A stretch of DNA of 64,000 nt from Streptomyces mobaraensis NBRC 13819 = DSM 40847. Its GTDB lineage: Bacteria; Actinomycetota; Actinomycetes; Streptomycetales; Streptomycetaceae. Position 1 is the first letter of the stretch, and every line of letters starts with the position of its first letter. The stretch spans positions 2,914,001 to 2,978,000 of the forward strand of contig NZ_CP072827.1 of NCBI RefSeq assembly GCF_017916255.1, in the 5' to 3' direction. This document shows positions 25,092-27,703 of the stretch, in pieces. The position numbers were made by a program, and so were the translations under genes. Under the pieces are notes generated by a model that worked only from the letters and a program-made list of their open reading frames with translations, searched no databases and had not been told where the DNA came from.

Positions 25092-25355
25092 TCAGACGGC
25101 CGCCTTCTTCAGGCGGCGGCGCTCCCGCTCGGACAAGCCGCCCCAGATGCCGAAGCGTTCGTCGTTGGCCAGCGCGTATTCAAGGCATTCGGAGCGGACT
25201 TCGCAGGCGAGGCAGACCTTCTTGGCCTCGCGGGTCGATCCGCCTTTCTCGGGGAAGAAGGACTCGGGATCGGTCTGGGCGCACAGTGCGCGCTCCTGCC
25301 AGCCGAGCTCCTCGTCCGCCTCCTCGACCAGCAGTTGCTGAAACAGCTCGGTCAT
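25092..25355 (-). CDS. whiB: WhiB, iron-sulfur developmental transcription regulator
   Basis: The product is 87 aa and begins MTELFQQLLVEEADEEL. Four Cys at 25, 48, 51 and 57 ('ALC', 'VCLACEVRSEC') bind a [4Fe-4S] cluster. The 'GIWGG' turn and basic tail 'RERRRLKKAAV' follow the Wbl pattern. In Streptomyces WhiB works with WhiA to start sporulation septation; the mycobacterial counterpart is WhiB2. The sequence and the position between the zincin/DUF3499 genes and fbiA-fbiB match whiB rather than other Wbl paralogues. It has a long upstream region (427 bp to the leader ORF), consistent with complex control. Confidence 0.96.
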   Translation of the reverse strand: MTELFQQLLVEEADEELGWQERALCAQTDPESFFPEKGGSTREAKKVCLACEVRSECLEYALANDERFGIWGGLSERERRRLKKAAV

Positions 25356-25745
25356 GTGCGCCCCTCGTCTGTCATTGCGTCCCCGTGATGCTGCCGTGAT
25401 CAGGTACGGCAGAACGACACGAGTGAAATTACAAGTGCGCCGATCCGGGCCAGTCAAGCCGAGATCTGCTATTGAGCCCCTTATTCACTCTGCGGAACCA
25501 AGGCCGAGCGGAAAGTTGCCAAACCGCCACAAGAGTGGACACATCTCTCGTCGGCCACAGCCGTCCCGCGGCTCCCTTGTCTTCCAGAGAGACGCGAAGG
25601 GCGGCCGCCCAGTTGCACCGCCCGGAACCGGGCGATGTTTGAACACCAGGATGCCGGGCGATTGTCCCGCGAGCCACGAGACAAACCTTTTTCCGATCTC
25701 CCCTACCGGATGAGGTGAAAGATTGGCATCAAACCGGACATCCGG
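25356..25745. promoter_or_regulatory. whiB upstream region
   Basis: This stretch upstream of whiB contains no gene on either strand. It is relatively AT-rich for this genome around 25400-25560 and 25680-25745 and presumably carries whiB promoters. I could not assign a specific -35/-10 pair or regulator site with confidence. Confidence 0.5.
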
Positions 25746-25783
25746 TTGACATGGCGCCGCGGATGCCGGTCTCCTTGTCAGCA
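25746..25783 (+). promoter_or_regulatory. Putative leaderless promoter for the Cys-rich leader ORF
   Basis: TTGACA at 25746-25751 is a consensus -35. Eighteen bases downstream, TCTCCT (25770-25775) keeps only the first and last T of the -10 consensus. Transcription would start at or next to the A of the ATG at 25783, giving a leaderless message. The -35 is seen; the -10 is weak. Confidence 0.45.
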
Positions 25784-25905
25784 TGCTCGCGACCGCACCC
25801 TCCCCGACGTCCGCCCGGACGTCCGTCCCGGGGATCCCCGGCCTGACCCGTTCCTACGGGTCGCGCTGTGCCGTTCAGGCGCGCTGTCGCTGTTCCAGCT
25901 GTTGA
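25783..25905 (+). CDS. Putative Cys-rich leader peptide upstream of cysteine dioxygenase
   Basis: This is a 40-codon ORF beginning MLATAPSPTSARTS and ending RCAVQARCRCSSC then TGA. Four of its last 12 codons are TGT (Cys), a rare amino acid and codon here. No Shine-Dalgarno precedes the ATG, but a TTGACA at 25746 places transcription start near the ATG. Poly-Cys leaderless ORFs that act as cysteine-responsive attenuators are known from Mycobacterium. Here the downstream gene is cysteine dioxygenase, and 259 nt with possible hairpins separate them. The regulatory role is inferred, not shown. Confidence 0.55.
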   Translation: MLATAPSPTSARTSVPGIPGLTRSYGSRCAVQARCRCSSC

Positions 25906-26164
25906 TGCCGCAGAGCTCCGGCTGACGCCTTCCCTTTCCTCTTTTCCCGAGGTTTCTTCGAGGCTTCTTCGAGGTCTCCCCGGTCCCGTCACCGCAGTCC
26001 CGTCCGTGCTCCGCCGCGGCGTCCGCGTCGTCGTCGGCCACCGGACGCGTCCCCGTACAGCCCGGCCGGTCCTCCGTACCGGCCGCCGCGCCGTACGCGT
26101 GACCGTCCGTACCCCACCGCCCTCCGGCCCCGCGCCTCCCGCCACCCGTCGAGGAACCCCTCTC
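25906..26164 (+). promoter_or_regulatory. Leader mRNA between the Cys-rich ORF and cysteine dioxygenase
   Basis: The region starts pyrimidine-rich (CCTC at 25938-25941), followed by three CGAGG motifs spaced exactly 11 bases apart (25948, 25959, 25970). At the far end, GAGG (26151-26154), the only plausible Shine-Dalgarno for the next gene, can pair with CCTC (26159-26162) across a 4-base loop. Earlier CCTC tracts could also pair with it. This is compatible with ribosome-binding-site sequestration. Confidence 0.45.
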
Positions 26165-26677
26165 ATGAACAGCGACGTCCAGATCGCCGGCGACCCGCTC
26201 GCCCTCCCCCACCTCATGCCGCCGCCCGCCGCCCACCCCTCCACCGTCGCCGAGTTCGCCGGGCTGGCCCGGAGCATCGCCGCCGACCGTGCGGCGTGGT
26301 CCCGGCTGGTCCGCTTCGACGCCGGCAGCCGCTGGTACCACCGGCTGCGTACCGGCCCCGGCTACGAGGTGTGGCTGCTGAGCTGGGTGCCCGGCCAGGG
26401 CAGCGGACTGCACGACCACGGGCGCTCCTCCGGCGTCCTCACCGTTCTCCACGGCACGCTGACCGAACTGCACGAGACGTCCGGGACCACCGTCCGGCGC
26501 CGGCTCCGCGCCGGCGACCAGCGGGTCTTCGCCCCCGGCTACGCCCACGAGGTCGTCAACGAGTCCCTCGAACCGGCCGTCAGCCTCCACGTCTACTCCC
26601 CCGGCCTCACCGAGATGCCACAGCACCGCCCGCTCCGCGCCGCGGCGGGCCGCCCGGCCGCCGCGCCCGTCCGGTGA
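26165..26677 (+). CDS. Cysteine dioxygenase family protein
   Basis: This 170-aa single-domain cupin of the thiol dioxygenase family converts a thiol, most likely L-cysteine, to its sulfinate with Fe(II) and O2. The iron ligands appear in 'GSGLHDHGRSSG' (two His) and 'APGYAHEVVNE' (third His). 'WLLSWVPGQGS' and 'RWYHRLRTGPGYEV' fit the bacterial subgroup. The ATG begins MNSDVQIAGDPLALPH; an upstream in-frame extension is Arg/Pro-rich and unlikely. It follows the putative Cys leader ORF and precedes fbiA by 54 bp. Confidence 0.92.
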   Translation: MNSDVQIAGDPLALPHLMPPPAAHPSTVAEFAGLARSIAADRAAWSRLVRFDAGSRWYHRLRTGPGYEVWLLSWVPGQGSGLHDHGRSSGVLTVLHGTLTELHETSGTTVRRRLRAGDQRVFAPGYAHEVVNESLEPAVSLHVYSPGLTEMPQHRPLRAAAGRPAAAPVR

Positions 26678-26731: not shown

Positions 26732-27703
26732 ATGCAGCGCATTGTGGTTCTGGCCGGCGGGATCGGGGGCGCCCGCTTCCTCCGCGGCCTGACATCAGCA
26801 GCCCCGGACGCGGACATCACCGTCATCGGCAACACCGGTGACGACATCCACCTCTTCGGCCTCAAGGTATGTCCCGACCTCGACACGGTGATGTACACGC
26901 TCGGCGGCGGCATCCATGAGGAGCAGGGGTGGGGCCGCGCCGACGAGAGCTTCGCCGTGAAGGAAGAACTGGCCGCCTACGGCGTCGGCCCCGAGTGGTT
27001 CGGGCTGGGCGACCGCGACTTCGCCACGCACATCGTCCGTACGCAGATGCTCGCCGCGGGCTACCCGCTCAGCGCCGTCACCGAGGCGCTGTGCGAGCGG
27101 TGGAAGCCGGGCGTCCGGCTGCTGCCGATGAGCGACGACCGCGTCGAGACGCACGTGATGATCGACGACCCGGACGGCGCCGAGGGCGCTCGCAAGGCCG
27201 TGCACTTCCAGGAGTACTGGGTGCGGCTGCGGGCCCAGGTGCCCGCACACGCGATCATCCCCGTCGGCGCGGAGCAGGCGAAGCCGGCGCCCGGTGTGCT
27301 GGAGGCGATCGGCGCGGCCGACGTCATCCTCTTCCCGCCGTCCAACCCGGTCGTCAGCGTCGGCACCATCCTCGCCGTGCCCGGGGTCCGGGAGGCCGTC
27401 GCCGCCGCCGGCGCGCCGGTCGTCGGACTCTCGCCGATCGTCGGCGACGCGCCGGTGCGCGGCATGGCCGACAAGGTGCTGGCGGCCGTCGGCGTCGAGT
27501 CCACGGCCTCGGCGGTCGCCCGGCACTACGGCCCCGACCTGATCGACGGCTGGCTGGTCGACACCGTCGACGCGGCGCGGACCGCCGAGGTGGAGGCCGC
27601 CGGCATCCGCTGCCGGGCCGTCCCGCTGATGATGACGGACGTCCCGGCCACCGCGCGGATGGCCGCCGAGGCCCTGGCCCTGGCCGAGGAGGTGCGCGCG
27701 TGA
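26732..27703 (+). CDS. fbiA: 2-phospho-L-lactate transferase / FbiA (coenzyme F420 synthesis)
   Basis: FbiA joins the phospho-lactyl/enolpyruvyl-type guanylyl intermediate to the deazaflavin Fo, giving F420-0 or its dehydro form. The 323 aa match family length. The N-terminus has '[16 protein letters not shown]' and '[22 protein letters not shown]', both CofD hallmarks, and '[15 protein letters not shown]' follows further on. The TGA overlaps the GTG of fbiB (GTGA at 27700-27703), so the two are translationally coupled. Confidence 0.97.

What the first reader, a model, noticed from the sequence alone, without database searches (positions are those of the whole stretch)
25746..26167. Leaderless Cys-rich ORF with a foldable ribosome-binding site upstream of cysteine dioxygenase
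A 40-codon ORF (25783-25905) ends RCAVQARCRCSSC-stop: four TGT codons in its last 12. Four Cys so close together is rare for a chance frame in GC-rich DNA. A TTGACA 18 bases before a weak -10 would start the mRNA at the ATG itself. The downstream gene oxidises cysteine. Its GAGG Shine-Dalgarno (26151-26154) can pair with CCTC (26159-26162), and upstream CCTC and three CGAGG motifs could form alternative pairs. Poly-Cys leaderless ORFs acting as cysteine-sensing attenuators are established in mycobacteria. Here the target is a cysteine-consuming enzyme linked to fbiA-fbiB, so the sign of control and a link between sulfur and F420 are open questions.
Basis: partly seen in the sequence, partly recalled or inferred. 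Interest (0 to 1): 0.85.

Follow-up and report, generated by a model that had tools for sequence, protein, structure and literature searches.

The report
Cysteine-codon switch before cysteine dioxygenase
A tiny cysteine-rich reading frame ahead of a Streptomyces cysteine dioxygenase gene is complementary to the start of that gene, so that a ribosome stalled for lack of cysteine would uncover it; the arrangement is conserved in relatives and puts a cysteine-oxidising enzyme under what looks like cysteine-starvation control.

Summary
The ORF at 25783-25905, with four TGT codons near its end and TTGACA 37 nt before its ATG, is present in 147 of 148 whiB-linked loci read (134 distinct). It has no Shine-Dalgarno. 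The proposed GAGG:CCTC switch is not conserved (4 of 134). Instead the Cys codons are the reverse complement of the start of cysteine dioxygenase: 25885-25895 pairs with 26167-26177. The longest helix averages 11.9 bp against 5.4 bp for synonymous reshuffles, and both strands are constrained at synonymous sites. In a model, a ribosome on the last Cys codons frees the start (0.21 to 0.51 unpaired); one on the far upstream Cys codon does not. Best reading: a cysteine-responsive translational attenuator of the kind known in mycobacteria, outside the NCBIfam leader families, masking start codons rather than the SD. The genome's second CDO gene has a separate Cys leader whose end complements its SD. 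In published S. coelicolor data the genes that correspond to both CDOs rise together with cysteine biosynthesis, so induction by cysteine shortage, though paradoxical, is favoured. Nothing was tested at the bench.

The parts
25746..25775 (+). Putative promoter of the leader ORF: TTGACA 25746-25751, 18 nt, hexamer TCTCCT 25770-25775
   Evidence: TTGAC 35-37 nt before the ATG in 99 of 99 distinct loci; hexamer is a poor -10 and one search reports no promoter; no start-site data
25783..25905 (+). Leader ORF, presumed leaderless, Cys codons at 25867, 25885, 25891 and 25900 (first bases)
   Evidence: Frame kept in 147 of 148 whiB-linked loci; no SD
25845..25862 (+). H1, hairpin inside the ORF (GACCCGT / ACGGGTC)
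   Evidence: MFE; GACCCG..CGGGT present in 102 of 134 distinct leaders
25885..25895 (+). 5' strand of helix P2 (TGTCGCTGTTC), made of Cys codons
   Evidence: 11-bp helix, 0 of 200 synonymous reshuffles as long; pairing probability near 1 over most of it
25896..25924 (+). H3, weakly supported hairpin around the stop codon (25896-25901 with 25919-25924)
   Evidence: Helix of at least 6 bp possible in 82 of 134 leaders against 20 of 134 in one shuffle each
26151..26156 (+). Shine-Dalgarno of the dioxygenase gene (GAGGAA)
   Evidence: [AG]AGG within 20 nt of the start in 130 of 134
26167..26177 (+). 3' strand of helix P2 (GAACAGCGACG), last base of the start codon to codon 5
   Evidence: Ser codon 3 is AGC or AGT in 134 of 134, against 478 of 1,267 Ser codons later in the gene
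26165..26677 (+). Cysteine dioxygenase type I family gene (CDO1), the presumed target
   Evidence: PF05995, 73 bits against a cut-off of 23; substrate not tested

Best explanation
A cysteine-responsive translational attenuator. Transcription starts at or next to the ATG of the short ORF, and ribosomes translate it without a 5' leader (both inferred). When Cys-tRNA is plentiful the ribosome finishes and leaves; the UGU-codon run then pairs with the start of the dioxygenase gene about 270 nt downstream and blocks its translation (pairing shown in silico and by sequence constraint; block inferred). When Cys-tRNA is scarce the ribosome stalls on the last UGU codons, covers that strand and frees the start (modelled), so the enzyme rises when cysteine is limiting (inferred, favoured by published mRNA data). 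The Cys codons are sensor and sequestering strand at once.
For: ORF in 147 of 148 whiB-linked loci. Promoter at fixed spacing, no SD. Longest helix 11.9 bp against 5.4 bp for synonymous reshuffles in 99 loci. Cys third base facing A in the partner: TGT 257, TGC 4; facing G: TGT 30, TGC 59. CDO codon 3 AGC/AGT in 134 of 134. Footprint on Cys codons at -18 to -3 raises start accessibility from 0.21 to 0.51, control footprints leave it at 0.22 and 0.21, 123 of 134 leaders gain over 0.1. The second CDO gene of the genome has a separate Cys leader; AGGACGG in its SD region in 27 of 28 loci, 0.12 expected. That leader and the one before the sulfite-reductase operon match NCBIfam NF042934. SCO3035 up 6.54x and SCO5772 up 8.0x with the cysteine-biosynthesis genes (PMC4991794).
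Against: No transcription-start, ribosome or reporter data. The -10 is poor and one search finds no promoter. SD accessibility in the window does not rise in the model (0.55 free, 0.47-0.48 stalled). The first Cys codon of the window (-36) has no effect in the model. A ribosome at the stop codon also opens the start (0.44). TGT is also preferred where the partner is C (43:2) or unpaired (175:62), which pairing does not explain. Two-sided changes within the genus are few. A cysteine-oxidising enzyme induced by cysteine shortage is unexpected, and two cdo mRNAs rise on cysteine-rich feather medium in Streptomyces SCUT-3 (PMC7181669 passages; orthology unknown).
Confidence: 0.7

Rival explanations
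1. Same leader and helix, opposite sign: with ample cysteine, frequent passage of ribosomes keeps P2 open and the enzyme is made; in severe starvation ribosomes stall at the far upstream Cys codon and P2 stays shut.
For: Fits a cysteine-disposing enzyme; a stall at -36 leaves P2 closed in the 37 leaders that have that codon, the window included, and a ribosome at the stop codon opens the start; cdo1 and cdo2 mRNA up on feather medium in SCUT-3.
Against: Most Cys codons lie in or beside P2, where a stall opens it; the -36 codon is absent from most leaders; SCO3035 and SCO5772 rise with cysteine biosynthesis.
Confidence: 0.15
2. P2 is a plain RNA lock on the dioxygenase start, opened by translation of the leader as such; the Cys codons are a by-product of the sequence needed for pairing, and cysteine is not sensed.
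For: The paired strand accounts for most of the conserved Cys codons; codon-position pattern gives no sign of selection on the peptide.
Against: Cys codons outside P2 are common (-36 in 37 leaders; -3 in 123 of 134); the CDO2 leader and family f4 leaders keep Cys codons although their sequences differ.
Confidence: 0.1
3. Transcription attenuation: the position of the ribosome decides whether the C-rich untranslated linker (C 0.47, G 0.26 in the window) is terminated, for example by Rho, and P2 is secondary.
For: C-rich linker; published changes are at the mRNA level.
Against: No terminator-like site between the ORF and the gene; linker length varies from 51 to 302 nt and its sequence is poorly conserved in the alignment; P2 is the constrained element.
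Confidence: 0.08
4. The ORF makes a functional cysteine-rich (for example metal-binding) small protein.
For: Three to seven Cys in the last 16 codons; conserved place.
Against: Cys number and spacing vary; third codon positions vary less than first and second (0.14 against 0.32 and 0.28 in 60 leaders), unlike CDO; no homologue in the protein search and no NCBIfam match.
Confidence: 0.03

Closest known systems
Polycysteine-encoding leaderless short-ORF attenuators of mycobacteria (Canestrari et al. 2020; not held, known here from passages of citing papers, and recall)
   Same: Leaderless short ORF, clustered Cys codons, presumed stall that uncovers the start of a downstream sulfur-metabolism gene.
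   Different: Streptomyces; a cysteine dioxygenase as target; the lock is on the start codon and first codons about 270 nt away, and the Cys codons themselves form it.
Cys-rich leaderless uORFs at cysA2/Msmeg_5788, Rv0485/Msmeg_0932 and nirA/Msmeg_4527 (Shell et al. 2015, PMC4633059, passages read)
   Same: Short Cys-rich leaderless ORF conserved ahead of a gene, in part of cysteine metabolism.
   Different: Other genes; the passages read give no pairing model.
NCBIfam NF042934 cis_reg_atten (putative leader peptide), NF042933 (Ms5788A) and NF042936 (Ms4527A) leader families
   Same: The CDO2 leader and the sulfite-reductase leader of this genome match NF042934 above its cut-off.
   Different: The window ORF and the MLAN-type ORF match none at E up to 10.

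Membership tests
Polycysteine leaderless short-ORF attenuator | Short ORF with Cys codons clustered at its end | tested here: met
   At least 3 Cys in the last 16 codons, 134 of 134 distinct leaders
Polycysteine leaderless short-ORF attenuator | Transcript starts at the start codon | not testable with these tools
   Only indirect: fixed TTGAC spacing and no SD in 99 distinct loci
Polycysteine leaderless short-ORF attenuator | Sits ahead of a cysteine-metabolism gene, conserved in relatives | tested here: met
   CDO_I family gene; 147 of 148 loci
Polycysteine leaderless short-ORF attenuator | RNA structure hides the downstream initiation site and a stalled ribosome relieves it | tested here: met
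   In silico only: start region 0.21 to 0.51 unpaired; the SD itself is not freed in the window
Polycysteine leaderless short-ORF attenuator | Expression responds to cysteine limitation | not testable with these tools
   Only indirect mRNA data under H2O2
NCBIfam NF042934, NF042933, NF042936 leader peptides | Profile match of the leader peptide | tested here: not met
   Window ORF: 0 families at E up to 10
Cysteine dioxygenase type I (PF05995) | Match above the gathering score | tested here: met
   73 bits against 23
Cysteine dioxygenase type I (PF05995) | Oxidises L-cysteine | not testable with these tools
   Nearest PDB chains are labelled cysteine dioxygenase; no activity data seen

The most novel reading that the evidence does not exclude
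Cysteine dioxygenase genes of actinomycetes belong to the cysteine-starvation response through Cys-codon leaders of different sequence and different masking targets (start codons for CDO1; SD for CDO2 and for the CDO of G672; another form in family f4). These enzymes would then serve sulfur supply, for instance by turning other thiols or persulfides into sulfite, rather than disposal of excess cysteine; and the CDO1 leader is a switch in which the sensing codons of one ORF are antisense to the start of the next.
Probability: 0.4. Interest if true: 0.75.

Novelty: new variant of a known kind. Interest (0 to 1): 0.63.

Why it matters
It would extend cysteine-codon attenuation from mycobacteria to streptomycetes, show a simple design in which the sensor codons are also the lock, and make directly testable why an enzyme that oxidises cysteine should be switched on together with cysteine synthesis. 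The predictions (break and restore P2 by matched synonymous changes) are clean and can be run in ordinary laboratory species.

Tried and rejected
GAGG:CCTC as the switch: rejected as the conserved element (exact equivalent in 4 of 134), though predicted in the window. Ranking the start window by duplex energy against other windows was not informative in G+C-rich DNA (best in 7 of 99 loci); replaced by helix length against a synonymous null. Rfam: no match at E up to 1 in 25400-26300. Protein search with the leader: no homologue. Scans for ORFs with at least 3 Cys near the cysH/sulfite reductase, CysK/M-type (12 loci) and rhodanese (8 loci) genes of the own genome gave one convincing case, the CDO2 leader; that cut-off missed the one-Cys leader before the sulfite-reductase operon, found by motif. 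Genome pattern scans gave hits at the rate of the reversed control (1 against 2; 12 against 11), and these patterns would not match the window's own leader, so other such leaders are not excluded. A stricter pattern of the CDO1 leader end occurs in 19 of 120 relatives, 0 reversed. Outside family f4 most CDO loci showed no leader (4 of 32, by a loose criterion), and none was found in 11 loci of 10 genomes of family f50, so the arrangement is not universal. For CDO2 the longest helix fell on the SD in only about 6 of 28 loci, and 20 of 28 leaders end in exact CCGTCCTG (recount). The helices listed for family f4 (6-9 bp) have no control and are not used. In one search the ATG of the 37 second-set leaders was chosen with preference for one preceded by TTGAC, so the promoter count rests. 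In one search one locus (L009) had a misplaced CDO start, corrected. Left out of the 148: paralogous CDO loci of the genus not next to whiB (L154, L170), which showed no such ORF. No structure prediction was run. Literature searches for a Streptomyces CDO leader returned none, but only open-licence papers are held.

Full report
What is there. The reading frame at 25783-25905 is as described: 40 codons, ending CAVQARCRCSSC-TGA, all four Cys as TGT. Of 1,252 open 12-codon tails in the window, 3 carry at least four Cys, and this is the only one with four TGT. It lies between divergent whiB (25092-25355, minus) and a cysteine dioxygenase gene (26165-26677; PF05995), followed by cofD/fbiA (26732-27703).

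Conservation. Homologues of the dioxygenase were found in 295 of 295 genomes of the genus searched (paralogs included). I read 110 loci first: the 30 best and the 80 best. 110 of 110 have a sense ORF upstream with at least three Cys in its last 16 codons (109 show whiB, L047 is cut by its contig end). In a second set of 38 whiB-linked loci (28 new from the best matches, 10 lower-scoring ones), 37 have it and L148 does not. That is 147 of 148, or 134 distinct leaders. Among the 99 distinct loci of the first set, with the ATG chosen by peptide motif, TTGAC stands 35-37 nt before the ATG in 99 of 99, and no SD-like 4-mer precedes it. ORF lengths run from 84 to 147 nt. In 60 leaders of the commonest type, third codon positions of codons 2-17 vary less (0.14) than first and second (0.32, 0.28); in CDO it is the reverse (0.50 against 0.14, 0.14). 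The peptide as such does not look selected.

The switch. In the minimum-energy folds of ten leaders I saw that the Cys codons CGC UGU CGC UGU UC pair with GAACAGCGAC(AGCG), the end of the dioxygenase start codon and its first codons. In the window TGTCGCTGTTC 25885-25895 pairs with GAACAGCGACG 26167-26177 (11 bp, one of them U-G). Over 99 distinct loci the longest helix averages 11.9 bp (7-16); with the ORF tail recoded synonymously at CDO codon usage it averages 5.4 bp, set means 5.11-5.71 over 200 draws. The third base of Cys codons follows the partner: facing A, TGT 257, TGC 4; facing G, TGT 30, TGC 59. Facing C it is 43:2, and unpaired 175:62, so pairing is not the whole reason for TGT. 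At the main register 9 of 11 pair positions are standard in 87-99% of 134 leaders, the last two in 74% and 78%. On the other strand, CDO codon 3 is AGC or AGT in 134 of 134, against 478 of 1,267 Ser codons later in the gene. Two-sided changes within the genus are few, because MNSD is conserved. L148, the one locus without the ORF, also has a changed start (MNNDNE).

Modelling a ribosome. With the mRNA starting at the ATG, positions +1 to +13 of CDO are 21% unpaired on average; a 30-nt footprint on Cys codons at -18 to -3 raises this to 51%, two control footprints leave it at 22% and 21%, a ribosome at the stop codon gives 44%, and one at the first Cys codon 41%. 123 of 134 leaders gain more than 0.1. 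The -36 Cys codon, present in the window and 36 other leaders, has no effect (-0.02). In the window the values are 0.17 free and 0.49-0.51 stalled, but its SD region does not open (0.55 free, 0.47-0.48 stalled).

Related arrangements. The second CDO gene of the same genome (L222, with a rhodanese gene and recX beside it) has its own leader, MTDGGARFWRRVHVDLLRYAGCVCRPSC. A leader of this kind with TTGAC or a close variant upstream was found in 28 of the 30 loci read. Its end complements the SD: AGGACGG is present in 27 of 28 loci against 0.12 expected from shuffles, and 20 of 28 leaders end in exact CCGTCCTG. This leader, and one before the sulfite-reductase operon (L114), match NCBIfam NF042934 above its cut-off; the window ORF matches nothing. 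In the unnamed family f4, 16 of 18 CDO loci read carry short ORFs with paired or triple Cys near the end, 39-74 nt upstream. In G672, another family of the order, a leader ending SALCCCLCCRPSL has an end that pairs with the CDO SD (GTCCTTCGC with GCGAAGGAC) in the predicted fold. Masking of initiation by the end of a Cys leader thus recurs with unrelated sequences.

Sign. Geometry predicts more enzyme when cysteine is scarce. In S. coelicolor treated with H2O2, SCO3035 (6.54x) and SCO5772 (8.0x) rise with cysN, cysD, cysC, cysH, cysI, cysM and ssuABC (PMC4991794, section 20 part 1). That these two are CDO1 and CDO2 is inferred: whiB is SCO3034 (PMC5845573 passage), recX is SCO5770 (PMC6637917 passages), and the gene order is that seen here. 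These are mRNA levels under oxidative stress, which the authors attribute to the HbpS-SenS-SenR system, not translation under cysteine limitation. On the other side, Streptomyces SCUT-3 raises two cdo mRNAs (50.2x and 8.3x) on feather medium (PMC7181669 passages), which could mean induction by cysteine; orthology is unknown. Dominy et al. 2006 on bacterial cysteine dioxygenases was seen only in a reference list; that it tested an S. coelicolor enzyme is recalled.

Known kind. Passages of citing papers describe mycobacterial leaderless short ORFs with Cys codons that control downstream genes by attenuation depending on cysteine, and Shell et al. 2015 describe Cys-rich leaderless uORFs ahead of cysA2 and nirA. 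Canestrari et al. 2020 itself was not held. The window leader works like these. Verdict: new variant of a known kind, with start-codon masking by the sensor codons and an unexpected target. Conservation and pairing are shown; leaderless start, stalling and direction of control are inferred.

Noticed in passing
L222 2577-2491 (minus strand), own genome: Second CDO gene, with rhodanese gene beside recX, has its own Cys leader whose end complements the SD (27 of 28 loci hold AGGACGG there).
   Followed up: partly
L114 about 6276 (minus strand), own genome: Leader MSRAGVALVSRRHVDLGRVSSAICPAG upstream of the sulfite-reductase/cysH genes; matches NF042934.
   Followed up: partly
window 25705-25720: Block ACCGGATGAGGTGAAA, most of its positions 70-95% conserved in 99 distinct loci, about 25 nt upstream of the TTGACA; function unknown (operator, or divergent whiB promoter).
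   Followed up: no
window 25732-25747: Inverted repeat AACCGG-ACAT-CCGGTT overlapping the TTGACA; not obvious in the relatives listed.
   Followed up: no
L148 (G512:C28:14800-16600): The one whiB-linked locus without the leader ORF; TTGACA 90 nt before the CDO start and the first codons changed to MNNDNE.
   Followed up: partly
L176-L193 (unnamed family f4): Short ORFs with paired or triple Cys near the end, 39-74 nt before CDO in 16 of 18 loci, a different form of Cys leader.
   Followed up: partly
L265 (G672): Leader MYQRADRLHHVKLRRVASALCCCLCCRPSL joins an HVDL-like motif and a polyCys run ahead of CDO; its end pairs with the SD in the fold.
   Followed up: partly
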